From NCBI RefSeq assembly GCF_001543285.1, contig NZ_CP014164.1:1984001-2048000 (forward strand): a stretch of DNA of 64,000 nucleotides, read 5' to 3'. This stretch comes from Aerococcus viridans (GTDB lineage: Bacteria; Bacillota; Bacilli; Lactobacillales; Aerococcaceae). How positions within the stretch are numbered: position 1 is the stretch's first letter; every line of letters starts with the position of its first letter. Shown one piece after another: positions 25,743-61,509 of the stretch. The notes below the pieces were generated by a model, which did not search any database, was not told where the DNA came from, and was given only the letters and a program-made list of their open reading frames with translations. The position numbers were made by a program, and so were the translations under genes.

Positions 25743-27071
25743 ATGGAAATTGAAAAACAAATTGCAGATAAGTATTTGAAGACATATATGGTTGAAAAAG
25801 CTCCAGGATCTGCATCTTTAATTGCTTTCCCCACTTCAACTGAAGAAGTGGTCGCATTTATTAAGGATGCCAACGCAAGAAAGCAACCCACGATTACTAT
25901 CGGTCGTCAAACTGGATTAACGAGCGCAACTTATCCTATCAATAATGCTTGGTTACTAAGCTTGGAGAAAATGAATAACATTATTTCATTAGATGAACAA
26001 ACGCTGACTTTAACAGTTCAAGCAGGTGTAACCTTATTTCAAATCCGTGATTATCTAGAGAATACGCCTTATTTCTATGCCCCTGACCCTGGTAATAAAA
26101 ATGCTTCAGTCGGCGGAAATGCATCTACAAATGCTGGTGGGATGCGAGCGATTAAATACGGTGTGACCCGTGACAATATCCGTGGTTATGATGTGGTATT
26201 AGCTAATGGAGAATTGATTCACGTTGGCTCTTTAAATAAAAAAGATGCAACAGCTTATGATTTGAAAGACCTATTTATCGGTGCTGAAGGTACACTCGGG
26301 GTAATCACAGAGTTGCAATTGAAATTAACACCACGTCCAGCTTTTGAGAAATCTGTTATTCTCGGTTTTAATTCTTTAGATGGTGTGTCAGATGCTATTT
26401 TTGAAGTTGTGAAGTCACCTGTTCAACCAATTGCTTTAGAACTTTTAGAAGAATCAGGTATCCACTATTCTGAACAATTTATCAACAAGAAAATGCCTGA
26501 AGTTCACGGCGAAGCTTTCTTATTGGCAACCGTAGCAGACAATGCGGCAGACGGTTTAGCCTTCCAACTTGAAGCCATTCAAACCCTCGGGAAAAAGGCT
26601 GGTGCAATTGAAGCCCGCGAACTTTCTGATGATGAAGCACGCGAAATGTGGGCCATCCGTGATAATGTCTTGAACGGTATCGTTTCTAAAGGTGACTGGA
26701 AAATGTATGACCCAGTTGTTCCTAACCACTTATTTACAGACTTAGTGAAGGAAGGTAAACGTTTAGGAGATAAATATAATGTCCAAACAGGTTTCTTCGG
26801 TCACGCAGGAGACGGTAATATTCATATTTGTATCTTACGGGGTGATCAAGATGATGAAACTTGGGAACAAATTAAACACGACTACGAAAATGATTTATTC
26901 CCATATGTTGCTGAACAAGGTGGTTTATTATCTGCAGAACACGGTGTTGGTTTAGAGAAAAAAGCCTATCTACCTTATTTCAAAGATGAAGCATATATGG
27001 CAGTATTGAAATCCATCAAACAAGCCATGGATCCAAATAACATCTTGAACCCAGGAAAAATGTTTGACTAA
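25743..27071 (+). CDS. FAD-linked oxidase (GlcD/D-lactate dehydrogenase type)
   Basis: A 442-residue flavoprotein. The FAD_binding_4 domain carries PGNKNASVGGNASTNAGGMR and GAEGTLGVITELQLKLTPRP. The C-terminal FAD-oxidase domain carries FGHAGDGNIHICIL and SAEHGVGLEKK. Family members oxidise 2-hydroxyacids such as glycolate or D-lactate, and the substrate here cannot be told. No iron-sulfur subunit gene is adjacent. The stop codon is followed after two bases by a tandem array of structured repeats. Confidence 0.88.
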   Translation: MEIEKQIADKYLKTYMVEKAPGSASLIAFPTSTEEVVAFIKDANARKQPTITIGRQTGLTSATYPINNAWLLSLEKMNNIISLDEQTLTLTVQAGVTLFQIRDYLENTPYFYAPDPGNKNASVGGNASTNAGGMRAIKYGVTRDNIRGYDVVLANGELIHVGSLNKKDATAYDLKDLFIGAEGTLGVITELQLKLTPRPAFEKSVILGFNSLDGVSDAIFEVVKSPVQPIALELLEESGIHYSEQFINKKMPEVHGEAFLLATVADNAADGLAFQLEAIQTLGKKAGAIEARELSDDEAREMWAIRDNVLNGIVSKGDWKMYDPVVPNHLFTDLVKEGKRLGDKYNVQTGFFGHAGDGNIHICILRGDQDDETWEQIKHDYENDLFPYVAEQGGLLSAEHGVGLEKKAYLPYFKDEAYMAVLKSIKQAMDPNNILNPGKMFD

Positions 27072-27073
27072 AC

Positions 27074-27445
27074 AGGATGTGAGATAGGGCGTCTAGATAG
27101 GAGTCAATGGAAGAAATAGTGCCGTGGCACACAGAGTGTGACGCAAACTATTCTGAAGTGGACACCTATCTGCCCTGACGAACTCAACTTCACAAGGGTG
27201 AGAGCGAGACCGCTCAACTCAATAACGATGGAAGACTATAGCCGTATCACACGCAGTGTGATGCAATATAGTCTGAAGCGGACTTGAGTTGGTCGAGCGA
27301 ACCCAACTACAGGATGCGAGCACCGACGCTCAGAAAGAAAACGTTGGAAGATTAGTGCAGTAGATGACGCAGTCAGCTGCAAACTAAGCTGAAACGCAGT
27401 TCTTTCTGGAGGTGCGAGCTCAACTTCACAGGATGTGAGACAGCG
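27074..27445 (+). repeat. Tandem array A of modular structured repeats (three units plus a stub)
   Basis: Units at about 27074-27194, 27195-27310 and 27311-27429, then a truncated start. Each begins AGGRTGYGAG or similar and ends CRARCYCAACT. Inside are nested helices. Unit 1: AGGGC/GCCCT, AGATAGG/CCTATCT, AATAGT/ACTATT and CACAC/GTGTG. Unit 2: GACC/GGTC, CAACTCAA/TTGAGTTG, GACTATA/TATAGTC and TCACAC/GTGTGA. Unit 3: GCACC/GGTGC, AGAAAGAA/TTCTTTCT, TTAGT/ACTAA and TGAC/GTCA. GGAAG before the third helix and CTGAA after it are kept. The array begins two bases after the FAD-oxidase stop codon on the same strand. Confidence 0.85.
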
Positions 27446-27479
27446 CAAACTTAATGTTTATGGGTAGCCTTTCGGCTTC

Positions 27480-27661
27480 CACATACCTATCACTGCCTTA
27501 AAAGCAGTGGGACCGCCCTTAGAAAAATTTTCTAAGGGCTTTTCTGACGACTCATTCTGTAAGGGGTCCCCCCTAACAGTCTGATGTGGGTCAGAAATCC
27601 TTGCTTCACTGCTAAGGCGTGCTAGGTAGTTCCAGCCTCGGGCTTGTATTTTTAAAGTATA
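27480..27661 (-). ncRNA. Candidate structured RNA with nested fold, strand uncertain
   Basis: No gene covers this stretch, but it folds strongly. Outer pairs are ACCTA (27485-27489) with TAGGT (27623-27627). GCCTTA-AAA-GCAGTG (27495-27509) pairs with CACTGCTAAGGC (27607-27618). Inside, TTTCTGAC (27541-27548) pairs with GTCAGAAA (27590-27597) around AGGGG/CCCCT, beside a separate perfect hairpin at 27515-27539. On the minus strand a promoter-like TTGATT (27678-27683), 16 bases, TATACT (27656-27661) lies just upstream. I do not recognise it as RNase P, SRP, tmRNA or 6S RNA. It may also be part of the 3' region of the plus-strand gene. Confidence 0.45.
27515..27543 (+). terminator. Perfect hairpin, likely terminator for the FAD-oxidase transcript
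   Basis: GCCCTTAGAAAA pairs with TTTTCTAAGGGC around a single A, followed by TTTTC. It lies about 440 bases after the oxidase stop and after repeat array A. Confidence 0.55.
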
Positions 27662-27723
27662 ATCGCTATGTAAATCTAATCAATAATCTATTTCATTTTA
27701 AGTTTATTTGTATTTCAAATAGA

Positions 27724-27883
27724 AAGAGGCTGGGACAAAAGGTCTCTCAAAAAAATACACTCCCAAAATTATGAACTTTTTTGTTCAGTAGTGGGAGTGT
27801 ATTTTTCTATATCTTTATAAAAATAAACGAAAGTGGGACTACTTTTTTCGCAAAAGTAGTTTTGTCCCAGCCTCTTTTCTTTA
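27724..27883. repeat. Long inverted-repeat element with GAGGCTGGGACAAAA ends
   Basis: The ends AGAGGCTGGGACAAAA and TTTTGTCCCAGCCTCT are inverted copies. Inside are two more hairpins: AAAATACACTCCCA/TGGGAGTGTATTTT and ACTACTTTT/AAAAGTAGT. The terminal sequence resembles elements I recall between genes of staphylococci, enterococci and lactobacilli, often acting as bidirectional terminators. It lies just past the stop of the sirtuin gene, so it probably ends that transcript. Confidence 0.75.
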
Positions 27884-27893
27884 ACATACTGAT

Positions 27894-28625
27894 TTAACTC
27901 AATTGGCTAAAGACGTTTTCAATAGTGTCTTCAAATACTAAGGCATCGTGATAGGGAATTTGAAGTGGTGATTTGTTTACTACGGTTAGATATTGTCCTC
28001 GGAAGTAGTTTAAGAATCCAGCTGCTGGATAAACGACTAGACTTGTTCCCAAGATAACTAATAAATCTGCTTGGCGAATCTTATCCACTGCCCCGTTCAC
28101 TACGTCTTGGTCTAATTGTTCTTGATACAACACAATATTAGGTCTAACAATGCCTTGGTCAATTGAACAGCGCGGAATACCATCCTGGTCTAATTGAAGT
28201 TCTTCTAATTTATAATGATGGCCACATGAAACACAGTAGTTATCTAGGGTGCTGCCGTGTAATTCGTAAACCGCTGATGAACCAGCTTTTTGGTGCAGAC
28301 CATCGATATTTTGCGTAACCACAGAAACATCTTTTCCAGACCCTTCCAAGCTAGCGATAAATTCGTGCCCTATATTAGGCGTAGCTTCTGGATAAACTAA
28401 TTTATCAAAGTGATAGGCAAAGTATTCCTTTGGGTATTGGGTAAAGAAATGATGAGAAACGACTTCTTCTGGGCTATAGGTCCCCCCTAAGTTTTCCATG
28501 AAAAGGCCATTCGCTGACCGGAAATCAGGAATACCAGAGGCTGTAGACATTCCCGCTCCTGTAAAAAAGACAATACGTTGGCTATCCTGAATTTGTTGTT
28601 TAAATTGTTGGATTTTATCGTCCAT
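27894..28625 (-). CDS. cobB: NAD-dependent protein deacylase, Sir2 family
   Basis: A 243-residue sirtuin. NAD-binding motifs are FFTGAGMSTASGIPDFRSA (near residue 20) and VVTQNIDGLHQKAG, the catalytic His is in YELHGS and the later NAD motif is VILGTSLVVYPA. Sirtuins remove acyl groups from lysines using NAD. The zinc site is unusual: the first pair CVSC is present, but the second reads RCSIDQG, so the fourth Cys is replaced by Asp or lost. The NAD-synthesis genes nadE/pncB lie nearby on the same strand but in a separate unit. The ATG follows AAAGGAG. Confidence 0.9.
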   Translation of the reverse strand: MDDKIQQFKQQIQDSQRIVFFTGAGMSTASGIPDFRSANGLFMENLGGTYSPEEVVSHHFFTQYPKEYFAYHFDKLVYPEATPNIGHEFIASLEGSGKDVSVVTQNIDGLHQKAGSSAVYELHGSTLDNYCVSCGHHYKLEELQLDQDGIPRCSIDQGIVRPNIVLYQEQLDQDVVNGAVDKIRQADLLVILGTSLVVYPAAGFLNYFRGQYLTVVNKSPLQIPYHDALVFEDTIENVFSQLS

Positions 28626-28776
28626 GTTAGTTCTCCTTTATATAATTCTTTACCTATTCTAACATGACCAAATTTTTCATGCGAAATATCAAACCATTAA
28701 AGCCTTGAGCAATCTAATTGCTTATAAATTTGGTTTTATCTAATATAATGACTGACATTATAAAAAGGAGTACATT

Positions 28777-29487
28777 ATGCGAATTGAATTTTTCCACGAT
28801 GTGATTTGCTCATTTTGTTTCCCCATGTCTAATCGCATGCGGAACATCACTAGTAAATATAATAACATCGACGTGGTCCACCGATCTTTCGCTTTAGGTT
28901 GGGAACCAGATCACTTTATCCAAATGTTTGGCTCACGTGAAGCTGTTAAACCTGAAGTGTTAACGCACTGGGAACAAGCTAATCAAAATGATGATGACCA
29001 CCGCTTTAATATAAAGGGAATGCTTGAAACTGACTTCAACTTTCCAACTTCAAAAAATGGTTTAAAAGCAGCAAAAGCCGCTGGTATTATAGGCGGGCAA
29101 GATGGTTATTGGGATGCTTTTGATGCTATCCAAAATGCACTATTCGTTGAAAATAAGAATATTGAAGAATTTGAAATTTTAAAAGCTGCTATAGCGACTA
29201 CTCATATCGATCTTGACCAATGGGTAGCACAATATAAAAAAGCTGAAACAGAAGAAGCGGTTTTACAAGATTTAGCAGTCAGTCAAGCTTATGGCATTCA
29301 AGGAGCGCCAGCTTTAGTGGTCAACCAAAAATATTTGATTTCAGGTGCACAAGCAACTGAAGACATTGAAAACCAGCTAAAACAAATTGCTGAAGAAGAA
29401 GGTCAACCATTAACACCAAAACTGCAAACCTTAGGTGGCTTGGGAATGGCTTGTAATTTCGTAGCTGGTCAATGGATTTGTGACTAA
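28777..29487 (+). CDS. DsbA-family thioredoxin-fold oxidoreductase (FrnE-like)
   Basis: A 236-residue protein of the DsbA/2-hydroxychromene-2-carboxylate isomerase family. The active-site-like motif is VICSFCFP near residue 10. The cis-Pro loop is GIQGAPALVVN near residue 178. No signal peptide is present, so it acts in the cytoplasm, as FrnE-type proteins do. These are linked to thiol redox homeostasis. The start follows AAAAAGGAG. Single gene, divergent from the sirtuin. Confidence 0.85.
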   Translation: MRIEFFHDVICSFCFPMSNRMRNITSKYNNIDVVHRSFALGWEPDHFIQMFGSREAVKPEVLTHWEQANQNDDDHRFNIKGMLETDFNFPTSKNGLKAAKAAGIIGGQDGYWDAFDAIQNALFVENKNIEEFEILKAAIATTHIDLDQWVAQYKKAETEEAVLQDLAVSQAYGIQGAPALVVNQKYLISGAQATEDIENQLKQIAEEEGQPLTPKLQTLGGLGMACNFVAGQWICD

Positions 29488-29657
29488 TCTTTCTTTCAAT
29501 GAGGTATATGATGAGATTAGCGGAATATACTTGGGACATGTTTTAGTAAAAAACGCTAAGTCCTAGATAAGTAGTTTTTAAATAGTTCCCCATAACAGTG
29601 ATAATTCTTGAAAAAGTACAAAATGAATCTAACAAATTCACCCGTTGAAAAATAATA

Positions 29658-29700
29658 GAAAATAGCCTTTGTGAAAAGTAACATCACAGAGGCTATTTTC
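29658..29700. terminator. Bidirectional terminator between dsbA-like gene and nadE
   Basis: GAAAATAGCCTTTGTGA pairs with TCACAGAGGCTATTTTC (one mismatch). It has A/T-rich flanks on both sides, so it can serve the plus-strand dsbA-like gene and the minus-strand pncB-nadE transcript. Confidence 0.75.
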
Positions 29701-29743
29701 TATATAAGTTAAAGCTTTTTAAGCTTTTGACTCGGCTATTACA

Positions 29744-29892
29744 GCCTATGAAGTTGAGCTCGTACTTCGCATCCTATTTAGTCGGGTTCAGTCGACCAGC
29801 TCAAGTCCGCTTCAGACTATATTGCATCACACTCGTGTGATACGGCTATAGTCTTCCATCGTTATTGAGCTTAACGGTCTCACTCACACCCT
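29744..29892 (-). repeat. Array B of modular structured repeats (one unit plus a deleted one)
   Basis: Read on the minus strand the array starts inside the nadE stop codon (TAG of ATAGGGTGTGAG). Unit 1 has the helices GACC/GGTC, GCTCAA/TTGAGC, GACTATA/TATAGTC and TCACAC/GTGTGA, nearly the same as unit 2 of array A. A second unit has lost its body: AGGATGCGAAGTACGAGC joins directly to CTCAACTTCATAGG. It ends before the terminator at 29658-29700, so it would be part of the nadE 3' UTR. Confidence 0.8.
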
Positions 29893-30721
29893 ATTTCTTC
29901 CACCATTCGTCATACACTGTGATTGGTAATTCACGTTTGTGTTGGGTTTTTAGGTACCAGTTTTCGATTTTTTCAGCTGCTTCTTGGGCTACTTCTTTGC
30001 CTTCTAAGTAAGCATCGATGTCTTGGTAGGTGACACCTAGGGCTACTTCATCGGCTAAGCCGGGACGGTTTTCTTCTAAGTCAGCTGTTGGCACCTTAAC
30101 GTATAAATGCTCTGGGGCATCTAAATATTCAAGGATAGCGCGTCCTTGACTTTTATTTAACCGCCAGATAGGCAGGATATCTGCTGCGCCATCACCGAAC
30201 TTGGTATAGAAGCCTGTCACTGATTCAGCGGCATGGTCTGTCCCTACCACGACACCTGCATTTTCACCTGCGATCGCATATTGTACCAACATTCGTTGGC
30301 GTGCTTTGATATTTCCTTTATTGAAGTCAGAAATGGTAAGGCCACCCTTTTCCAATTCTTCAACGGTGACATCAACAGCTGGCTTGATGTTGACGCGTAC
30401 AGTTTGGTCCGCAGCCATGAAATCTATAGCGTCCATAGCATCAGCTTCATCGGCTTGGTTGCCGTAAGGAAGACGGACTGCGATGAATTGATACTTATCG
30501 TCGCCAGTTTCTTCGCGCATTTCAGTTATGGCCATTTGACATAGTTTACCGGCTAGGGTTGAATCTTGCCCACCAGAAATGCCTAATACTAAGCTTTTTA
30601 GAAATGGATACTTGTGAAAGTATGCCTTGATGAAATCGATGGTACGTCTGATTTCTGTTTCCGGGTCAATGCTCGGTGCGACTTTAAGGGCATTGATGAT
30701 TTCTTCTTGTAATGAACGCAT
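29891..30721 (-). CDS. nadE: NH3-dependent NAD synthetase
   Basis: A 276-residue enzyme that makes NAD from nicotinic acid adenine dinucleotide, ATP and ammonia. The PP-loop is [15 protein letters not shown] near residue 48, followed by the family motifs [40 protein letters not shown] and [10 protein letters not shown]. There is no glutaminase domain. The start at 30721 has GGGGAG nine bases before; a longer frame would overlap pncB. Second gene of pncB-nadE. Confidence 0.96.
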
Positions 30722-30755
30722 GGTATTCTCCCCTTTTATTGCTTTATTCATCAAC

Positions 30756-32249
30756 TTAGTCTTCGTTGTCACCGTTTAAATCGGATTCTTTAAACTCTTC
30801 ATTGATACGTTCACGAATTTCAGCGATTGAATTCATCTTTAAATCATACAGTTCTTGCGATAAGTCCACTGGATATGGCTCTGGATTCAACATACGGCGG
30901 TATTCTGACCATAAGGCATCCAAGTGCTCGCGTGAAAAATCACGAACGGTTTCAAGCGTTGGCAGATCGTAAACCAATTCACCCTTGTCGATGATGGTTT
31001 TTAATAATGGACGAGCGTTGAAACGACGAACTGTTTTATTGATATAAGTATAAATTGGATGGAACATGAAGATAGACTCAGCGTCATTAGGATCTTCATT
31101 CATGGTTGTAATATAGTCCCCTTCAGATTTACCATCTTTCTTGCGGGTAATACGCCAAATTTGTTTCTCACCTGGTGTGGTGATTTTATCTGGAGACGAC
31201 GAAATTTTCATGGTTGGGACCATATCGCCATGCTCATCTTCAATGGCACATAGTTTGTAAACGGCTCCTAAGGCTGGTTGGTCAAAGGCAGTAATCAGCT
31301 GAGTACCTACACCCCAAGCGTCAATTTTAGCGCCTTGCATTTTCAAGTTTAAGATCGTTTTTTCATCTAAATCGTTTGAGGCAGAAATGATTGCATCAGG
31401 ATAGCCCGCTTCATCCAACATCTTACGGATACTTGATGATAAGTAAGAAATATCGCCAGAGTCGATACGAACGCCGACAAAACGAGATTTATCTTCCATC
31501 TCATTGGCCACTTTAATCGCATTTGGCACTCCTGAACGAAGGGTATCATAAGTATCTACTAAGAATGTACATTTTTCATGGGCATTTGCATAAGCTTTAA
31601 AGGCCTCATAGTCACTTTGGTAAGCTTGTACCATAGCATGCGCATGGGTTCCTGAAATTGGAATGTTGAATAATTTACCTGCGCGTACGTTTGAGGTTGA
31701 ATCAAATCCACCGATGTAAGCAGCGCGCGAACCCCAAATTGCTGCATCCATTTCTTGGGCACGACGGGCACCGAATTCAGCTAGTGCGTCGTCGCCAGCT
31801 ACGTTACGAACGCGTGAAGCTTTGGTTGCAATTAGGGTTTGATAGTTGATGATATTTAAAACAGCCGTTTCGATCAAAGTACAGTCAGCTAGTGACCCCT
31901 TAATTTGCATCAATGGTTCGTTCGAAAAGGCAATTTCCCCTTCTTCCATTGAACGAATTGTTGCATCGAAGTGGTAGTTTTTCAAATAGTCTAAGAAATC
32001 TTCGGGATAGTCTTGTGTTTCCCGTAAGTAGGCGATATCGTCGTCGGTAAATTTTAAGTTTTGTATATATTGAATGACACGTTCTAGGCCTGCGAAAATG
32101 GCGTAGCCACTTTCAAACGGATTTTTACGGAAGTACACTTCAAAAACCGCTTGTTGGTCAGCTTTTCCAGCGTCCCAATAAGTCTTCATCATATTGATTT
32201 CATATAAATCTGTGTGAAGCGCCAGGCTATCGTTGGTCGTTGTCTTCAT
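30756..32249 (-). CDS. pncB: Nicotinate phosphoribosyltransferase
   Basis: A 497-residue enzyme that converts nicotinate and PRPP to nicotinate mononucleotide in the NAD salvage pathway. Motifs seen are [19 protein letters not shown] at the N-terminus, [33 protein letters not shown] and [15 protein letters not shown]. Forms an operon with nadE, and together they carry nicotinate to NAD through the intermediate adenylylation enzyme, which is not in the window. The ATG follows GGAGGG. Confidence 0.96.
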
Positions 32250-32350
32250 ATTCTTATTCCCTCCAAGAATTGCGATTTGACTTTCCTTATTATACCACTA
32301 TTCCTCAGCTAGTTGTCACCTCTAGACGCTTATATCCTTGTTTTAGTAAG

Positions 32351-32396
32351 CAAAAAAGCGTTAGCTACCAGTACACATGACTGTCGCTAACGCTTA
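32351..32396 (-). terminator. Terminator after array C
   Basis: On the minus strand AAGCGTTAGC pairs with GCTAACGCTT and is followed by TTTTTG. It lies beyond array C, so the sugar-transferase transcript is predicted to include the array. Confidence 0.8.
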
Positions 32397-32429
32397 AATG
32401 ACTTTTCATTTATAAAAATTTGAACAAAC

Positions 32430-32818
32430 AACTCATCTGTTTAGACATCAGCGGTCTCACATCCTATTTAGTTGGGTTCGCTTTGGCAGTCCGGTCTCCA
32501 CTTCAGGAATATTTGCTGAAAGTAAACTTGCTACGGCATATTCCTTCCAGTGTTACCTGCCTGATCGCCAAAGCTCACACCCTGTTTAGTCGGGTTCGAG
32601 TCTCCAGAAAGAACTGCGTTTCAGATTAAGTTGTAGCTGACTTCGCTATCTACTGCCTTAATCTTCCAACGTTCCTTTCTTGACGTCGACTCTCACACCA
32701 TGTAGTTGAGCTCGCCAGGGCAGACAGGTGTCCGCTTCAGATTAGTTGGCGACACACCTTGTGTGTCACGGCACTAATCTTCCATCGTCTCCTGTCTAAA
32801 CGCCCTGTCTCACATCCT
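32430..32818 (-). repeat. Array C of modular structured repeats (three units plus a stub)
   Basis: Read on the minus strand: units 32818-32702, 32701-32584 and 32583-32466, then a truncated unit. Unit 1: CAGGGC/GCCCTG, AGACAGG/CCTGTCT, AGATTAGT/ACTAATCT, GACACAC/GTGTGTC. Unit 2: GAGTC/GACTC, AGAAAGGA/TTCTTTCT (with slip), AGATTAAG/CTTAATCT. Unit 3: GCTTTGGC/GCCAAAGC, AGGAATAT/ATATTCCT. The first two bases of the array are the last two of the sugar-transferase TAG stop. A terminator follows at 32351-32396. Confidence 0.87.
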
Positions 32819-34223
32819 ATCCTATGACGTCGATGTTCATTTCTTCTGCTTCTTCTCTTGTGACTGTTGGTTTTTCGTCTTCGTCAATTCCTGATGAGGA
32901 TACTTTGTCGAAGAGAATTTTAATAGTTTGCAATAAGATCTTGAAGTCCAAGAACATTGAGTATTGCTTGATGTAGATCAAGTCAAAGTTCAATTTAGAG
33001 TTAAAGTCAGTGGCATATTTACCGTAGACTTGTGCGTAACCCGTTATTCCTGCTTGTACGTTGTGACGTAAGTAGTAGTGCGGGTTTTCTTCTTGGAATT
33101 GGTTCACGAAGAATGGTCGCTCTGGACGTGGTCCAATCATGGACATATCTCCGCTTAGCACATTCAACAACTGTGGTAATTCATCGATACGCAAGGCACG
33201 GATATATTTACCAACTGTTGTGACACGTACGTCATTTTTCGTTGCAATCATTGGGCCAGATTTCACTTCAGCGTCCGTTGTCATCGAACGGAATTTCAAG
33301 ATATCAAACTCTTCGCCACCTTTAGTAATACGTACTTGGCGGTAGAAGACTGGCCCTTTGGAGGTTAATTTAATAATAATCGCTGTAATCAACATGATTG
33401 GTGACGTTAAGATTAAACCAACTAAGGCTATCATGATATCTAAACCACGTTTGATTAAGGCTTGGTCCGCTGGAATCGCAAAGTCTGAGGTTTCAATAAT
33501 AGATTCATCTTCAAAATTCATAATATTTGGATTTACCATGACCAGGTTTTCAAATTTAGAATTTAAGAACAGTTTTTTATTGGCCCGCATCAACAAGTCA
33601 TAAATTTTCAATTTTTCGCTTTCATCAATTTGCGATGCAAGATATACAATATCATACTCATCTAAACGACTCTTCACATTGCGGTAGTAATCTTCTAACA
33701 CCACGTGCGTTACGATATGACGAGTACTTTTCGAATTCTTGAAATTATATATTGCCGGAAAAACAGCTTCTTCAGATCCAACGATCATTACCCGTTTCGT
33801 AGACGCATAGCGTCGGTAAATATCGAAGACTAAGGCTCTAAAAGTGTAGAGCATCACAACACTTACCACAAAGTCGATCAAGACGACTGAACGCGGAAAG
33901 GCTAACCATCTACCAGCAAAACTTAAAACCATAGCAACAACTGCTAAGATTCCTTGACTGATGATGGTGATGAAGAAGAGGTCGCCTTTGGTTTTATCAT
34001 ATAGGATATAAACCCCAAATAAAATATTGATAAATACAAAGATAATTAATATCCAACCAATTGCCCCTTGGAAAGCTTCATAGTTTTTCAAAGGTACATA
34101 TCGACCATACCGCAAAAAGAATGAAACAAGATAAGAAAGGAACAAGATTAACGCTTCTGTTGCCACGATAACCACGCGGTACCAGTTCGTCCATTCTCCG
34201 TTTTTTTGCATTTTTTCACCCAT
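32817..34223 (-). CDS. Polyprenyl-phosphate glycosyl-1-phosphate transferase
   Basis: A 468-residue membrane enzyme of the CpsE/WbaP type that loads the first sugar phosphate onto undecaprenyl phosphate for exopolysaccharide or capsule synthesis. Four transmembrane helices (about 15-145), a nucleotide-binding-like region (KRVMIVGSEEAVFPAIYNFK), a fifth helix (IMIALVGLILTSPIMLITAI) and the catalytic C-terminal domain: GPVFYRQVRITKGGEEFDIL, KFRSMTTDAE, RIDELPQLLNVLSGDMSMIG, PRPERPFF. No glycosyltransferases or other polysaccharide genes are adjacent. The start may instead be the ATG at 34211. Confidence 0.92.
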   Translation of the reverse strand: MGEKMQKNGEWTNWYRVVIVATEALILFLSYLVSFFLRYGRYVPLKNYEAFQGAIGWILIIFVFINILFGVYILYDKTKGDLFFITIISQGILAVVAMVLSFAGRWLAFPRSVVLIDFVVSVVMLYTFRALVFDIYRRYASTKRVMIVGSEEAVFPAIYNFKNSKSTRHIVTHVVLEDYYRNVKSRLDEYDIVYLASQIDESEKLKIYDLLMRANKKLFLNSKFENLVMVNPNIMNFEDESIIETSDFAIPADQALIKRGLDIMIALVGLILTSPIMLITAIIIKLTSKGPVFYRQVRITKGGEEFDILKFRSMTTDAEVKSGPMIATKNDVRVTTVGKYIRALRIDELPQLLNVLSGDMSMIGPRPERPFFVNQFQEENPHYYLRHNVQAGITGYAQVYGKYATDFNSKLNFDLIYIKQYSMFLDFKILLQTIKILFDKVSSSGIDEDEKPTVTREEAEEMNIDVIG

Positions 34224-34337
34224 TTCATTATATATATACTATAAGTAAGCACCTATAATCCCTAATATTCTACCATAACCCGACTGGATTATAAGCCTAT
34301 TCTAGTTAAAAAACCTTTAAATTCCCCTAGAAAAACT

Positions 34338-34370
34338 GAAAAAGCAGCTAGTTTTTACCCTAACTGCTTG
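34338..34370 (-). terminator. Terminator after the serine-rich protein gene
   Basis: On the minus strand AAGCAGTTAG pairs with CTAGCTGCTT around GGTAAAAA (one mismatch), followed by TTTC. Confidence 0.65.
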
Positions 34371-34382
34371 AAACCATTTTGA

Positions 34383-35927
34383 TTACTCTGGTGATCCGTA
34401 TGGAATTTGACTTGATTCAATTACTGAATCACTTGCAACAGATGACTGAGGTCGTTCTGTTGTTGTTGATTCAACCGCTGATTGCTCTTGTGAGCTAGAT
34501 GATGTCGCGCTATCCTCTATAACTGAACCATTGCTTGAGGAAGATGATGATTCATCCATCTGACTTGAGTCACTTGCAGTACCGTCTTCAATTTCTGAAT
34601 CTTCACGTGATGATTCAGATTCACTCGATGATGTCGAATCGCTTGAAGTAGATGTTGATGCACTATCACTTGAGCTACTAGTTGAACTACTATTTGAATC
34701 ACTTGAGCTTGCAACACTAGAACTTGAACTAGATGCACTTGATACATGACTCGGTGATGAACTTGCTGAAGAAGAGATTTCTTCACTTGAACTGTCATGA
34801 GTTGACGAATCACTAGAAGGAGTTGATTCAACATCACTTGATGAGATAGAAGAGTTAGTATCTGAACTTGATGCAACGACCCTCGATGAGCTAGATACAC
34901 TACCACGACTTGATGAACTTGATGCATTGCCCCGACTTGATGACCGTGAAGTACTTTGTTCAAATTGTTTGGATGCTAATACACCAGAAGCTACATTAGT
35001 ATTCACACCAAATGATGGCCGATCTGCAATTTGACGCAGTGTTATGGTAGCTGATGCGCCATTTGAAGCCAAAATTTCTTCTCGTTTAGCTTCTAAATCA
35101 GCAATGCGACTTTTTGAGTCTTTAATGGCAGCTTGCCCTTCCTTACGAATTTGAGCTAATGCTTCATCTGATTTGTTGGTTGCTTCAGCTTCTTCTATCA
35201 AGCGGTTAAAGATATTTTGTGTCGCTTCCTCATCACTTGTAGCAATCATCTCTAACAATTTATCTTGTAGATAAGGATTTTCAATTTCATTGACCCGTTC
35301 AATGATCTTTGTAAGTTTGTCCACCAAACTAATGTAAGTAAGCGCACTATCTTTTTCAATTGCTAGTAAATCACTTTTATATTCTTCAATTATATCAACT
35401 TGATATTCGGCTTCGTCAATCAACGTTACGGCTGTGCTATAGAACCCATCATCTTCAAGGTTTAGTTGACTAGCATAGTTATCACGAAGTAAATCCAGTT
35501 TATCAACGGTTACCTCATCATCTACAAGAACGTATTCTATAATCGTCGCCCCATTGATGACTAATTCGTTATTACCAAGTTTATCTTTATCAAATAAATC
35601 ATTTAACTGGCTTTGTAAATCAAACCGTTGCTGTACAGAATGAATTCGGTCAACGATGATATCTTTATCAGCACTGTCTCTTAAACTATCTACTTCTTTA
35701 GTTAATTCAGTAATCTCGTCTTGTTGAATGTCTGCTTTTAGAAAGGTATAGGAGTTATCAAAATAAAGTGCATTTACTGCTGTTGCCACTGCTTCAGTTT
35801 TTTCTTCTGCAGACGTGCGATTCGTATTTATAAACGCACGAATGATGAAAAAGGCTGTCAAGCATATCACTACACCCGATAGAACATAGGCAATTTGTCG
35901 ATTATCTTTAAAAAAACGCTTGCGCAC
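34383..35927 (-). CDS. Membrane-anchored protein with long serine-rich C-terminal tail
   Basis: A 514-residue protein that I do not recognise. It has a 10-residue basic N-terminus, one membrane helix (about 13-33, YVLSGVVICLTAFFIIRAFI), then an extracellular helical region with acidic coiled-coil character (35-300). From about residue 325 to 505 it is dominated by Ser with Asp/Glu/Thr/Val (runs such as SSSSSSVASSSDSNSSSTSS). There is no LPXTG anchor. Such tails are often glycosylated or span the wall. The adjacent sugar-transferase gene is suggestive but unproven. The start is GTG behind GGAGGGAG. MapZ was considered, but the cytoplasmic domain is missing. Confidence 0.75.
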   Translation of the reverse strand: MRKRFFKDNRQIAYVLSGVVICLTAFFIIRAFINTNRTSAEEKTEAVATAVNALYFDNSYTFLKADIQQDEITELTKEVDSLRDSADKDIIVDRIHSVQQRFDLQSQLNDLFDKDKLGNNELVINGATIIEYVLVDDEVTVDKLDLLRDNYASQLNLEDDGFYSTAVTLIDEAEYQVDIIEEYKSDLLAIEKDSALTYISLVDKLTKIIERVNEIENPYLQDKLLEMIATSDEEATQNIFNRLIEEAEATNKSDEALAQIRKEGQAAIKDSKSRIADLEAKREEILASNGASATITLRQIADRPSFGVNTNVASGVLASKQFEQSTSRSSSRGNASSSSSRGSVSSSSRVVASSSDTNSSISSSDVESTPSSDSSTHDSSSEEISSSASSSPSHVSSASSSSSSVASSSDSNSSSTSSSSDSASTSTSSDSTSSSESESSREDSEIEDGTASDSSQMDESSSSSSNGSVIEDSATSSSSQEQSAVESTTTERPQSSVASDSVIESSQIPYGSPE

Positions 35928-36073
35928 TTTTTCTCCCTCCCTTTTCTCTTTTTCTCAGTTTCTTAGCCTTAAGACTATCATGCAATTGCACAAAAAACGC
36001 CAACTGTTGCACTTTATCATATAATTTTTATATTAGTCATACTTGTGTAATCAATTTGTAACAGCGTAAACAT

Positions 36074-36440
36074 AGGGTGTTGAGCTTTGGCGCTCAGGCA
36101 GGTAGCACTGGAGGGAATATGCCGTAGCAAGTTTACTTGCTGCAAATATTCCTGAAGTGGAGACCGGACTGCCAAAGCGAACCCGACTAAACAGGGTGTG
36201 AGTGTCGACGCTCAGAAAGGGAACGTTGGAAGATTTGAGCAGTGACTGACGAAGTCAGGTACAATCTAATCTGAAACGCAGTCCTTTCTGGAGACACGAA
36301 CCCAACTAAAAAGGATGCGAGACAGGGCGTTTAGACAGGAGACAATAGCATAATAGTGCCGTATTACACAAAGTGTGATCCAAACTATTCTAAAGGGGAT
36401 ACTTGTCTACCCTAGCGCGCTCAACTTCATAGGGGTTAAG
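36074..36440 (+). repeat. Array D of modular structured repeats (three units)
   Basis: Units at about 36074-36192, 36193-36311 and 36312-36431 plus a short stub. Unit 1 has GCTTTGGC/GCCAAAGC and GGAATAT/ATATTCC with a GCAAG/CTTGC tip (as array C unit 3). Unit 2 has GTGTC/GACAC, AGAAAGG/CCTTTCT and CTGAC/GTCAG. Unit 3 is degenerate but close to array C unit 1. Unlike arrays A, B, C and E, it does not follow a gene end: the nearest gene to the left starts at 35927 and points away, and an IS200/IS605 element begins just to the right. Confidence 0.85.
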
Positions 36441-36569
36441 CGTCTACGTAAATGAGTAGATTAAGTTTAACAATTTCTCTACATTTTACCGTGTATAATC
36501 TTTTGCCGATTAGAAGCTTTATTTAAAGTCGCCCCTTGAGAAAACCGTGTAATTCATTACATGGATGAA

Positions 36570-36992
36570 TCAAGTTCTAGGGCGACCGTCATTGTATTCC
36601 GTTAATTGATTTTCTATATACTTTTTGACCGTTTCTTTAGACATACTACCTACTGTTGCCATGAAATAACTAGGTGTCCATAAATGGCCACCCCATAACA
36701 TTGCTTTTGTTTCTGGATATGCTTTGAACCATAGACGTGCAGATTTCCCTTTAAGTGTTTTGACGATACTACTTGCGGCATGTTTAGGGTTGAACGGAAT
36801 CAACATATGGATATGGTCAGGCATTACTTGGAGCGATTGGATGACAATATCGTGTTCATCACAAATATGCGTCAATATATCTTGCATGGCGTTTTGCTTT
36901 TCAATGGTTGTAAATATTTCTTTACGATACTTTGTTACCCAAACCAAATGGAAATTAAAATCATAGACATTTGTCCTTGTTTTCACCATCAT
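36570..36992 (-). CDS. tnpA: IS200/IS605 transposase TnpA (Y1/HUH)
   Basis: A 140-residue single-strand transposase. The HUH motif is HIHMLIPF near residue 61. The nucleophile Tyr is in ETVKKYIENQ near residue 125. The N-terminus YDFNFHLVWVTKYRKEIFT is typical. It cuts and rejoins the element's ends in single-stranded form. Intact. Confidence 0.95.
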   Translation of the reverse strand: MMVKTRTNVYDFNFHLVWVTKYRKEIFTTIEKQNAMQDILTHICDEHDIVIQSLQVMPDHIHMLIPFNPKHAASSIVKTLKGKSARLWFKAYPETKAMLWGGHLWTPSYFMATVGSMSKETVKKYIENQLTEYNDGRPRT

Positions 36993-40038: not shown

Positions 40039-40265
40039 TAAAAAAATCCCCACCTCTATAACAGAGGCGGAGATCCACGGTACCACTCTAATTTTAGGGA
40101 TGGCCTTCACCTCCCCTTACTTGAAATGGTAACGTCATTAGCGAAATGACTTACTAACAAAGGTTCAGTCATTTTTCTCAACAATGCGGTTCAATCATCC
40201 ATTCTGTAAGGCCTCACACCAACGCCCCTCGCTATACCAGTAGATAATTTACTCTTTGTTTCATT
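40039..40265 (-). promoter_or_regulatory. T-box riboswitch, specifier CGC (arginine)
   Basis: Minus-strand leader of the transporter gene. Stem I begins near AACAAAGAG and closes with TTGTT. Its specifier loop reads GAAC-CGC-A, giving an arginine codon. The antiterminator T-box core AGAGTGGTACCGTGG is at 40075-40089. The terminator CCGCCTCTGTTATAGAGG plus T-run follows at 40041-40070. Uncharged tRNA-Arg would stop termination and raise transporter expression. The variable T-box base is U, predicting a discriminator A in the cognate tRNA. Confidence 0.88.
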
Positions 40266-40308
40266 GAATATTTATTAAAATAGTATGTGGTTTTACCACG
40301 TCCACTAC

Positions 40309-41572: not shown

Positions 41573-41663
41573 CAATTCGGAAGAATATATGCATTTTAAG
41601 CTACGGACCGTTTCGCACTTAGCGGATATCGGGCTCGCCAAATTAGACTTGTCACGTACTTAG

Positions 41664-42953
41664 TTATCTTAACCATTCATTATTTCTTGCAACATCCGAA
41701 AAGGCACCTGGTTCTGTTGTTTCACCTTTGGCCCAAATTTGCTCAGCCATTGTACGTGCTGATTGTGGTAAACCAAATAGTTTGATGAAGCCTTCTGCAT
41801 CATTTTGGTTGTAGATATCATCTTCACCAAAGGTTGCTAATTCATCTGAATATAATGAGTAAGGACTTGTCATACCTGCGTCGATGATATTCCCTTTATA
41901 CAGAATCATTGTCACTGACCCGGTCACAGTTTTTTGTGTTTCGTCTACAAAGACTTGCAGTGCTTTACGTAATGGGCTAAACCATAAACCGTTGTAAACT
42001 AGGTCAGCGTATTTCAAGGCTACGCTTTGTTTGTAGTGTTGTGTGTCACGGTCTAAAGCGATTTGCTCTAATTTCTCATGAGCGTGGTAAAGAATAGTGC
42101 CACCTGGTGTTTCATATACCCCACGTGATTTCATCCCTACTAAACGGTTTTCAACGACATCTAAGATACCGATCCCATTGGCGCCACCAATTTCATTTAA
42201 TTTTTCTAGTAAAGCGATTGGTGCTAATTTTTCCCCGTTTACAGCAATGGGGATACCTGATTCAAAGGTCACCGTAACTTCAACTTCTTGGTCAGGTGCA
42301 GATTGTGGTGATACCCCTAATTCCAAGATTTCTTCGTAGTTTGGTTTGTTGGTTGGGTCTTCTAAGTCTAACCCTTCATGTGACAAGTGGAATATATTTT
42401 CGTCTTTAGAGTAGTTGGTTTCACGTGTAATTGGTAGTGGCACGTTATGCGCTTCTGCGTAGTCAAAGGCTTGCTCACGAGACAAGATATCCCATTCACG
42501 CCATGGGGCGATGATCGTCATTGTTGGATCGAATTCACGGATGCCTAACTCGAAACGCACTTGGTCGTTTCCTTTCCCAGTACAACCGTGAACAATAGCG
42601 TCACAGTCTTCTAAATGCGCAATTTCAACCATACGTTTAGCAATTAATGGACGCGCGTAGGCAGTCCCTAATAAATAAGTCGACTCGTATTTAGCACCTG
42701 CTTGGATCGCTGGGAAAATGTAATCCGTAATGAATTCCTCACGCAAGTCTTCTACATATAATTTCGTCGCCCCACAGGCTACCGCTTTTTCTTTCAAGAA
42801 TTCAAAGTCTTCTTCTTGACCAACATTACCAGTCATCCCGATAACTTCACAGTCGTTATAGTTTTCCTTTAACCAAGGAATAATCACTGAAGTGTCTAAC
42901 CCACCTGAGTATGCTAGTAAAACCTTTTTAATGTCTGCTTTTGTTCTTGCCAT
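41664..42953 (-). CDS. argG: Argininosuccinate synthase
   Basis: A 429-residue enzyme joining citrulline and aspartate with ATP. The PP-loop motif is [20 protein letters not shown]. Further motifs are [35 protein letters not shown] and [20 protein letters not shown]. It sits 60 bases after the second SBP-permease gene on the same strand, so it probably shares its T-box leader. ArgH lies just upstream in the same direction but with a separate control region. The ATG follows TAGGAGG. Confidence 0.97.
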
Positions 42954-44740: not shown

Positions 44741-44985
44741 AAAAAAATCCGCCCCTTCAAATGAAGAGGCGGTTAATATCCACGGTACCACTCTACTGCT
44801 GACAAAAATACATCAACGCTTGATGACTTAACGCGCCTAACGAATTGAGCTACTTTTATATCTGATTAACTTACTTCACTCAATTATCTCAGCAATGCGG
44901 TTCACAATTCTCCTGACATAGACCTTCCACCAATCGTCTACTCGCTTTAGTCAGTACCCTTGTTACTCTTTGCTTCTATGATTTA
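44741..44985 (-). promoter_or_regulatory. T-box riboswitch, specifier CGC (arginine), complete
   Basis: Minus-strand leader. Stem I base AGCAA/TTGCT, AGAG motif, GGTGG segment and specifier loop GAAC-CGC-A are present. T-box core AGAGTGGTACCGTGG lies at 44779-44794 and the terminator CCGCCTCTTCA/TGAAGGGGCGG with seven T at 44741-44772. The Stem I base differs from the 40 kb T-box (AACAA/TTGTT) by a compensated pair. Controls the transporter and probably argG. Confidence 0.88.
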
Positions 44986-45053
44986 ATATTCAATTCTCAT
45001 AAAAAAATAACATCTATCATTTATTTTTAAGTTTTTATCATTTTCTTTTAATT

Positions 45054-48408: not shown

Positions 48409-48528
48409 TGCCCTAGTCGGGTTCGAGCCTCCAGAGAGGGCTGCGGTTCAGATTAGATTGTTGCTGACTTTGTCAGCCACTGCCCTAACCTTCCATCGTT
48501 CCTCTCTTGGCATCGGCTCTCTCACCCT
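48409..48528 (-). repeat. Unit E of the modular structured repeat, in the groEL 3' UTR
   Basis: On the minus strand, six bases after the groEL stop, one full unit: GAGCC/GGCTC, AGAGAGG/CCTCTCT, GGTTAG with CTAATC, and GCTGAC/GTCAGC. The constant blocks CGATGGAAG, CTGAACCGCAG and CGAACCCGACTA are present. It is followed by the terminator at 48312-48345. Confidence 0.82.
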
Positions 48529-48533
48529 GTTTT

Positions 48534-50156
<1,623 letters not shown>

Positions 50157-58680: not shown

Positions 58681-58797
58681 GGTACGCGAAAAGTCGCTGA
58701 GCATTGACGCGTCTAACGCATTTAGGCGCGTAAACACCAAAGCATAAACGCGCCCATAAACTGGACCAAAATTGGGTTTAAATTACTAAAATCAACC

Positions 58798-60837: not shown

Positions 60838-60964
60838 CCAATCCACTCCTTTTGTATATGTGTTCGTCCCTTACATCATAAACCATTTGCGGACAATTGA
60901 TAAGTAAAGCAGCTTATGATCTTTCTTATTTAATGAGGGTCCGGTAAAATGATCTATATATTCT

Positions 60965-61080
60965 AGGTGCGAGACAAACCGTTAACAGATGAACGTTGGA
61001 AGTTTAGGGCAGTGGCTGACAATGTCAGCTCAACTTAAACTGAAACGCAGTCATCTATGGTTTGTCCAACCCGATTTTAA
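60965..61080 (+). repeat. Unit F of the modular structured repeat
   Basis: One unit in a short intergenic region: GACAAACC/GGTTTGTC, AGATGA/TCATCT, GTTTA/TAAAC and GCTGAC/GTCAGC. The constant blocks ACGTTGGAAG, CTGAAACGCAGTC and CAACCCGA are kept. It lies after the start of the divergent oxidoreductase gene and directly before the NUDIX gene, so it does not follow a stop codon on its strand. Confidence 0.8.
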
Positions 61081-61113
61081 TGATAGTAAAAAAACGATTG
61101 ACAGGTGATACGG

Positions 61114-61509
61114 ATGAAAGATATTTATGTTGTTGGGGCGATTTTGATTAAAGACCAGCGAATTTTATGTGCCCAACGCGGGGGCGCGAAGTCTTTAGCC
61201 TACTTGTGGGAGTTTCCTGGTGGGAAGATAGAAGCTGGCGAAACTGCGCAAGGAGCCCTGAAACGTGAATTGGAAGAGGAGTTAAAGATCCAGGTTCAAG
61301 TATCCCCAGAGATATTTGATACATCAGCCTACGAATATGATTTCGGACGCGTTCATCTCACAACAATTATCTGCCAGCTTGAGCAAGGTGAGCCCTTCTT
61401 GACGGAACATAAGGCCATCAAGTGGTTGAAGCCTAGCGAATTGAAGTCTTTAGACTGGGCGCCAGCGGACCTGCCTGCTGTAGATAAGTTATCACAAATG
61501 ACGCTATAG
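61114..61509 (+). CDS. NUDIX hydrolase (MutT-like)
   Basis: A 131-residue NUDIX protein. The Nudix box GGKIEAGETAQGALKRELEE is complete, and the surroundings (ILCAQRGGAKSLAYLWEFPG) match 8-oxo-dGTP pyrophosphatases of the MutT type. It probably clears oxidised nucleotides. The ATG at 61114 follows AGGTGA; an in-frame GTG nine bases earlier overlaps that site. The following helicase gene begins 42 bases after the stop, so the two may form an operon. Confidence 0.88.
   Translation: MKDIYVVGAILIKDQRILCAQRGGAKSLAYLWEFPGGKIEAGETAQGALKRELEEELKIQVQVSPEIFDTSAYEYDFGRVHLTTIICQLEQGEPFLTEHKAIKWLKPSELKSLDWAPADLPAVDKLSQMTL

What the first reader, a model, noticed from the sequence alone, without database searches (positions are those of the whole stretch)
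32430..32818. A family of about 115-bp modular repeats whose helices covary between units
Ten or so full units in this window share constant blocks (leading AGGRTGTGAG, GGAAG before helix 3, CTGAA after it, trailing CGAACCCRACTA). The helices between them differ in sequence but remain paired. Outer helix: GTGTC/GACAC, GAGTC/GACTC, GCACC/GGTGC, GAGCC/GGCTC, GACAAACC/GGTTTGTC, CAGGGC/GCCCTG, GCTTTGGC/GCCAAAGC. Second helix: AGACAGG/CCTGTCT versus AGATAGG/CCTATCT, and AGAAAGG/CCTTTCT versus AGAGAGG/CCTCTCT, each a single compensated pair. Homogeneous copying of a mobile palindrome would not give this; selection on an RNA or single-strand DNA fold would. I know of no described element with this layout.
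Basis: partly seen in the sequence, partly recalled or inferred. Interest (0 to 1): 0.85.

Follow-up and report, generated by a model that had tools for sequence, protein, structure and literature searches.

The report
Mobile folded repeats after stop codons
The window holds copies of a roughly 118-base repeat, found in many copies in Aerococcus and some relatives, that keeps one elaborate hairpin fold while its letters change, and that often begins within a few bases of a gene's stop codon, so it looks like a spreading element that works as folded RNA at the ends of messages.

Summary
Twelve units align in the window and a covariance model finds 41 in the genome. A tree-based covariation test on sequence-only alignments gives 11 significant column pairs in an Aerococcus set and 18 in a set spanning several genera; all fit one fold. 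G-U outnumbers A-C in helices, favouring the sense strand. Rfam has no match.

The units are not an isolated RNA gene but a dispersed family: 33 of 395 genomes of the order, 13 of 80 genera, 25 to 89 matches in 11 of 15 Aerococcus genomes. They sit in tandem, swap inner hairpins and nest inside each other. In 45 of 73 arrays outside genome G014 the 5' end lies within 12 nt of a same-strand stop codon (G014: 1 of 24), against about 2.5% of intergenic positions. Orthologous units are about as conserved as the sequence upstream. Longer relatives carry a terminator and ends like an IS1182-type transposon.

Best reading: a MITE-like 3'-UTR element under selection for an RNA fold. Its role in mRNA 3'-end stability and its mobiliser are inferred.

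The parts
32702..32818 (-). unit 1 of the array in the finding; starts at the stop codon of the sugar-transferase gene 32817-34223 (T + AGG = TAG)
32584..32701 (-). unit 2 of the array in the finding
   Evidence: G000:C1:2016584-2016701
32466..32583 (-). unit 3 of the array in the finding
32451..32465 (-). truncated fourth unit (leading block AGGATGTGAGACCGC); by eye a terminator-like hairpin follows near 32355-32396
27074..27194 (+). unit; begins 2 nt after the stop of the FAD-oxidase gene 25743-27071
27195..27310 (+). unit, tandem
27311..27429 (+). unit, tandem; followed by a truncated unit from 27430
29776..29892 (-). unit overlapping the TAG stop of the NAD-synthase gene 29891-30772
29752..29775 (-). 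24-nt mini-unit: leading and trailing blocks joined, inner hairpin missing
36075..36192 (+). unit with a damaged leading block
36193..36311 (+). unit, tandem
36312..36430 (+). unit, tandem, partly degenerate (GGAAG and CTGAA blocks altered)
48411..48528 (-). single unit 5 nt after the groEL stop (gene 48534-50156)
60964..61080 (+). single unit between divergent genes, upstream of the NUDIX gene 61105-61509; not next to a stop codon
405..423 (-). 3' remnant of a unit after the stop at 426; two units at this place in G013
41630..41665 (-). remnant with inner part deleted; a weakly scoring full unit (34 bits) stands here in G013

Best explanation
The units belong to a family of small non-autonomous mobile elements (MITE-like) that carry a selected RNA fold and live in the 3' untranslated part of genes. 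Shown here: one conserved fold with strong covariation; conserved unpaired motifs; a strong excess of starts at or within a few bases of same-strand stop codons; tandem, nested and module-swapped copies; copies shared and replaced between close species. Inferred: the element is transcribed with its host gene; the fold forms directly behind the terminating ribosome and protects or sets the mRNA 3' end (long forms bring their own terminator); new copies arise with the help of an IS1182-type transposase, then multiply and reshuffle by recombination within arrays. Selection on the fold is then both for tolerance or benefit in the 3' UTR and for keeping the element usable.
For: Fold: 11 of 11 significant pairs (69 units, 6670 pairs tested) and 18 of 18 (32 units spanning several genera, 6786 tested) fit the fold. 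TGYGA/GA, GCGYYYAG/CTGC and CACTGGA/GAAGTG blocks recur across genera. Sense strand: GU 152 against AC 70 of 2586 cells; shuffles give 297 and 233. Position: 45 of 73 arrays (G014 excluded) within 12 nt of a same-strand stop, control 2.4-2.8%. Several units provide the stop (distances -2, -7, -9). Constraint: 22 orthologous first units average 95.6% identity, upstream sequence 94.4%, downstream noncoding 77.0%. Mobility: unit absent after groEL in G013 but present in G000, G003, G007; filled (G001) against empty (G002) site with an 11-nt direct repeat, the inserted copy lacking its inner part; 9 near-identical copies of about 175 nt read in G156, identity ending within 2-12 nt on the left and near the end of the terminator on the right, except one copy (L295) whose spacer and terminator differ. 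Ends: a DUF772-type IS in Aerococcus ends in GAGGCTGGGACAAAA; the right end of a long form in G002 reads the same 15 bases.
Against: No transcription data. 13 of 28 arrays in the window's own genome are not within 12 nt of a same-strand stop, including 36075 and 60964, and only 1 of 24 counted in G014 is. Of the genomes rich in units, G001, G002, G003, G006, G007, G010, G012 and G014 have no DUF772 match, while G011, without units, has one, so the mobiliser is not shown. Only one clean direct repeat was seen. The short 118-nt unit does not itself carry the terminator end. GAGGCTGGGACAAAA could be a terminator sequence that an IS end resembles by convergence. In 9 of 35 orthologous pairs the first units are under 70% identical, through replacement or internal insertion, so position is kept more than content.
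Confidence: 0.6

Rival explanations
1. Purely selfish DNA element: the hairpin is read as single-stranded or extruded DNA by a transposase, the host gains nothing, and the 3'-UTR location is simply where insertions do least harm.
For: Nested insertions, near-identical dispersed copies with sharp ends, transposon-like ends. Broken and chimeric copies occur at several sites.
Against: Insertion where harm is least predicts scatter through 3' UTRs in both orientations; instead the near-stop arrays cluster at -9..+6 of same-strand stops. Resident units of the same type are better conserved than downstream noncoding sequence. GU is favoured over AC on the sense strand. Asymmetric loop motifs are conserved.
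Confidence: 0.25
2. Covariation without selection: template switching inside a near-perfect palindrome corrects one arm from the other, so mutations become compensated mechanically.
For: One set of 11 long-form copies (8 of them from G156) has copy-specific inverted complements in the two flanks (5 of 11 copies with 7 bp or more, 10 of 110 in mismatched pairs, permutation p 0.0004); a second set of 7 shows 1 of 7, p 0.06. Such a process would produce this.
Against: It would also erase the tandem GA/GA, the one-sided 4-nt bulge and the GGA/GA loop, which recur across genera.
Confidence: 0.07
3. A trans-acting or cis-regulatory RNA class (riboswitch-like or sRNA) that happens to be multiplied.
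For: Motif-level conservation in loops resembles ligand- or protein-binding RNAs.
Against: Tens of copies per genome beside unrelated genes (FAD oxidase, NAD synthase, sugar transferase, groEL), more often behind than before genes, and no Rfam match.
Confidence: 0.08

Closest known systems
BOX elements of Streptococcus (boxA-boxB-boxC)
   Same: Small interspersed modular repeats of Lactobacillales, highly folded, tandem inner modules, insertions into one another, overrepresented between convergent genes, suspected to be mobile (PMC3049150, abstract and passages seen).
   Different: The passages seen describe end modules boxA and boxC around boxB copies, and the word compensatory does not occur in the text; here complete units repeat in tandem, inner hairpins swap, and many units start at stop codons. 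No alignment with BOX was made.
REP/BIME elements of enterobacteria (with RAYT transposases)
   Same: Palindromic repeats in transcripts; mRNAs with REP are targets of RNase R together with PNPase (PMC12320835 passage). An effect of REP close to stop codons on translation is recalled, not from a call.
   Different: REP are far shorter simple palindromes linked to Y1 transposases (recalled); Y1_Tnp has no match in six unit-rich Aerococcus genomes.
MITEs of IS1182-type transposons (DUF772 transposase; the family name is recalled)
   Same: A long form in Aerococcus shares the GAGGCTGGGACAAAA end with an IS in the same genus.
   Different: The 118-nt units in the window have other ends (AGGRTGYGA / TAGTYGGGTTC read inwards) and a covarying interior that a MITE does not need.
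RUP and SPRITE repeats of S. pneumoniae
   Same: Roughly 107-bp repeat (RUP) and a terminator-like repeat (SPRITE), both predicted to fold (PMC3049150 passages).
   Different: No common sequence was tested; the passages seen mention no stop-codon anchor for them.

Membership tests
Structured RNA (any Rfam family) | score above a family's gathering threshold | tested here: not met
   No match over the units at gathering level in the window or in eleven loci with relatives; only chance-level hits with lax settings over 27000-36500
Structured RNA (any Rfam family) | covariation beyond phylogeny | tested here: met
   18 of 18 pairs with E<=0.05 fit the fold; 11 of 11; own implementation, not R-scape
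MITE | terminal inverted repeats shared with an IS of the same host | tested here: inconclusive
   Right end of a long form in G002 equals the IS end of Aerococcus over 15 bases; left end similar with two bases missing and one changed. G002 itself has no DUF772 match. Short units only loosely similar
MITE | target-site duplication at insertion | tested here: inconclusive
   One clean 11-nt direct repeat (G001 filled, G002 empty); inverted rather than direct similarity of flanks in long forms
MITE | short, no open reading frame, many dispersed copies | tested here: met
   41 matches in the genome; 39 widely spaced pairs of unit ends in the DNA fetched by then, none recognised as an autonomous version
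REP/RAYT | Y1 (IS200/RAYT-like) transposase in genomes that carry the repeats | tested here: not met
   PF01797 has no match in G001, G002, G010, G012, G013, G014, which carry 37-89 unit matches each
BOX elements | boxA and boxC end modules | not tested
   Only passages of PMC3049150 were seen; the BOX models were not available
Group II intron | domain V and intron-encoded reverse transcriptase | not tested
   Considered because AGG|GTGYGA resembles the recalled GUGYG 5' end; the single end-to-end hairpin in 118 nt leaves no room for domain V

The most novel reading that the evidence does not exclude
A new kind of mobile 3'-UTR module: an RNA fold, found in 13 of 80 sampled genera, that places itself at translation stop sites, can supply a stop codon and in its long form a terminator, and is kept because the fold acts on the terminating ribosome or the mRNA end, possibly through a dedicated binding protein. 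Its arrays grow by insertion of whole folds behind or inside one another.
Probability: 0.3. Interest if true: 0.82.

Novelty: new variant of a known kind. Interest (0 to 1): 0.64.

Why it matters
Bacterial interspersed repeats are usually treated as DNA debris or simple palindromes. Here a repeat family shows covariation as clean as that of a functional RNA, with conserved loop motifs, while spreading, nesting and swapping modules, and many copies are anchored at stop codons. That makes it directly testable whether a selfish repeat has been turned into a general mRNA 3'-end part, and gives Aerococcus and relatives natural series of one fold behind many genes.

Tried and rejected
Rejected: Y1 (IS200) transposase as partner (no match in six unit-rich genomes). 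Autonomous version with an internal gene: pairs of unit ends 125-3500 nt apart in the DNA fetched by then gave 39 candidates; by eye these are nested or neighbouring units, small inserts, sequence gaps or, at larger distances, unrelated ends. Viral contigs: no exact junction match. attC sites, group II introns, toxI-type repeats and Helitron-like ends were considered from memory only. Of eleven non-Aerococcus loci from the pattern scan, five have model matches; five others look like chance (L181, L183, L188, L217, L223), and L182 has no model match though its sequence looks related.

Limits: R-scape was not run; my test follows its idea with FastTree, Fitch changes and 100 null alignments, and recombination between units breaks its single-tree assumption. 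For one search, 156 distinct matches were cut to 102 by length and origin and to 69 by a 92% identity filter. The 32 units were picked by hand. One of its 18 significant pairs (34-84) is not in the RNAalifold consensus but stacks inside the same helix. Gene calls are longest open frames, not annotation. G000, G003, G013 and G007 are close relatives and not independent. One search scored at most 91 candidates per genome and at most 9 with stricter filters, so copy numbers and the 33 of 395 are lower bounds (G018 is positive, negative); the single f6 genome rests on one weak match (E 2.1e-4). Apart from the longer stretches, the loci are those fetched for high model scores. The control counts only positions outside genes, while arrays may overlap a gene end; counting only 0..+12 gives 9 of 28 (G000), 4 of 13 (G001), 11 of 19 (G002). 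In one search, 35 ortholog pairs were found; 26 remain after dropping first units not over 70% identical, 22 of those with equal unit number.

Full report
Observation. The stretch 32430-32818 holds three complete units and a truncated fourth on the minus strand. Twelve units align over the window, at 27074, 27195, 27311, 36075, 36193, 36312 and 60964 on the plus strand and 29892, 32818, 32701, 32583 and 48528 on the minus strand. The leading block is more frequent than in any of 100 shuffles. Of five units folded singly, four beat all 200 shuffles and one is equalled or beaten by 1 of 200. The consensus fold has 37 pairs, 25 with changes on both sides.

Size of the family. A covariance model from the 12 units finds 41 matches in the window's own genome of 2.2 Mb. 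Among 40 genomes, 15 have matches: 11 of 15 of the genus (own genome included; 25 to 89 matches each), 4 of 9 from other genera of the family (1 to 4 matches each), 0 of 16 from other families of the order. In a wider draw 33 of 395 genomes and 13 of 80 genera are positive, including genera of three other families, one of them by a single weak match. No viral contig matched the same exact pattern.

The fold is real. I tested covariation against null alignments evolved on a tree. With 69 units of five close Aerococcus genomes, aligned by sequence only, 11 of 6670 column pairs reach E<=0.05; all 11 are pairs of the consensus, in four different helices (two of them, 15-100 and 27-92, are missing from the RNAalifold structure of that alignment itself). 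With 32 units spanning several genera, 18 of 6786 pairs reach E<=0.05; 17 are pairs of the consensus and the 18th, 34-84, stacks between 33-85 and 35-83; the best 22 all fit the fold. Weaker candidates include an outermost pair, residues 2 and 114 (E 0.3). Unpaired motifs recur while helices change freely: a tandem GA/GA beyond the outer helix, a one-sided four-base bulge (GCGYYYAG against CTGC), and CACTGGA against GAAGTG.

Which strand. In 38 pairs over 69 units, 2586 cells, 2120 are Watson-Crick, 152 GU, 70 AC and 244 other; shuffled columns give 297 GU and 233 AC. The excess of GU over AC favours folding of the strand as written, but 49 of the 152 come from two pairs (51-69, 52-68), so this is modest support.

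Place in the genome. Counting arrays, the 5' end lies within 12 nt of a same-strand stop codon in 15 of 28 (G000), 6 of 13 (G001), 15 of 19 (G002), 3 of 6 (G006, G010, G012), 1 of 1 (G009) and 5 of 6 (other genera); in G014 it is 1 of 24, where the counted units are mostly nested inside larger composites. For G014 composites I could by eye read a stop triplet just before the outer element in several printed copies, without checking gene frames. The control share of intergenic positions is 2.4 to 2.8%. Some units overlap the gene end and supply its stop (distances -2, -7, -9). In the window the arrays at 27074, 29892, 32818 and 48528 follow stops directly, and terminator-like hairpins can be read by eye behind them. 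The units at 36075 and 60964 do not follow a same-strand stop.

Dynamics. In the syntenic parts of G013, G003 and G007 several sites carry different unit numbers and types. One unit in G003 has the outer helices of one type around the inner hairpin of another, while G000 has that inner hairpin in a different frame. Deletions between constant blocks give chimeras and remnants. In G014 units sit inside the apical part of other units, by eye up to three levels deep. In G001 and G002 one site is filled and empty respectively, with an 11-nt direct repeat at the filled site; the inserted 125 nt is a unit lacking its inner part plus a tail and a terminator-like hairpin. After groEL the unit is present in G000, G003 and G007 and absent in G013; in G009 and G010 related sequence can be read there.

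Long forms. In G156 nine, and in G224 six, copies were read that consist of a unit followed by a short spacer and a terminator hairpin, near-identical except that one G156 copy (L295) differs in spacer and terminator; left-side identity ends within 2-12 nt. The unit with spacer and terminator, about 175 nt, leaves no room for a gene. Ten of these 15 have a same-strand gene ending at most 33 nt upstream, 6 of them within 12 nt. In a first set of 11 copies recognised by script (8 from G156) the right flank tends to be the reverse complement of the left flank of the same copy (5 of 11 with 7 bp or more; 10 of 110 mismatched pairs; permutation p 0.0004); in a second set (7 copies, mostly G224) this is not significant (1 of 7, p 0.06). 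Four DUF772 matches of equal score are in the window's genome; the three copies compared have perfect GAGGCTGGGACAAAA ends, as have IS copies in G013 and G009, and a long form in G002 ends with the same 15 bases. The name IS1182 is recalled, not given by a call. DUF772 has no match in eight unit-rich Aerococcus genomes and one in G011, which has no units, so the link is a proposal.

Constraint at fixed sites. Of 35 orthologous array pairs between G000 and three relatives, 26 have first units over 70% identical; of these, 22 with equal unit number average 95.6% identity in the unit, 94.4% in the 300 nt upstream (mostly coding) and 77.0% in downstream noncoding sequence. The 70% cut favours conserved pairs, and gene conversion between copies could add to this.

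Mechanism. The best account is an element transcribed in the 3' UTR whose fold forms right behind the stop codon. That part is inference; the most likely effect is on mRNA 3'-end stability or on events at the terminating ribosome. Enterobacterial REP sequences, in mRNAs targeted by RNase R together with PNPase (PMC12320835, passage), are the nearest working analogy. As a kind it falls with small mobile interspersed repeats such as BOX and RUP (PMC3049150, abstract and passages), but it differs in complete tandem folds, in module exchange, in strong covariation and in anchoring at stop codons.

Literature. The listings show no paper describing these repeats in Aerococcus or relatives; only three papers were opened, for passages. 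PMC2267715 (passages) clusters stem-loop repeats in 40 genomes; the species named in the passages seen do not include Aerococcus. The library lacks most subscription papers, so absence in print is not proven.

Noticed in passing
window 58690-58775; L133:18254-18420; L136:10673-10839: A second, smaller palindromic repeat of about 46 nt (TCTAACGCATNTAGGCG...CTCGCYCATAAWC) is inserted inside units in G013 and G003 and a similar stretch stands in the window.
   Followed up: partly
window 27725-27875: A palindromic stretch of about 150 nt with ends like the DUF772-type IS (AGGCTGGGACAAAA...TTTTGTCCCAG), absent at the same place in G013.
   Followed up: partly
window 36570-36992, minus strand: IS200-type Y1 transposase gene, one of 18 Y1_Tnp matches in this genome; the alignments to G013, G003 and G007 skip about 36.2-38.3 kb.
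   Followed up: partly
window 40060-40273 and 44762-44987, minus strand: Two T-box leaders at Rfam gathering level.
   Followed up: no
G001/G002 stretches L235-L242 and L253-L260: Another dispersed family of roughly 200-330 nt (TTTGAGCAGGAGTGGAGC...GAAGTTG) accounts for several indels between the two species, once with a short repeated flank (GAAAATT) on both sides.
   Followed up: no
G002 stretch, joined position about 114904-115064: Tandem repeats of about 41 nt (CGCAAGTTGAGCTGG...), fewer in G001.
   Followed up: no
long-form copies L293, L297, L298, L299 (G156) and L321 (G046): Copy-specific inverted complementarity (7-11 bp) of the two flanks of an inserted element, which ordinary direct target duplications do not give.
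   Followed up: partly
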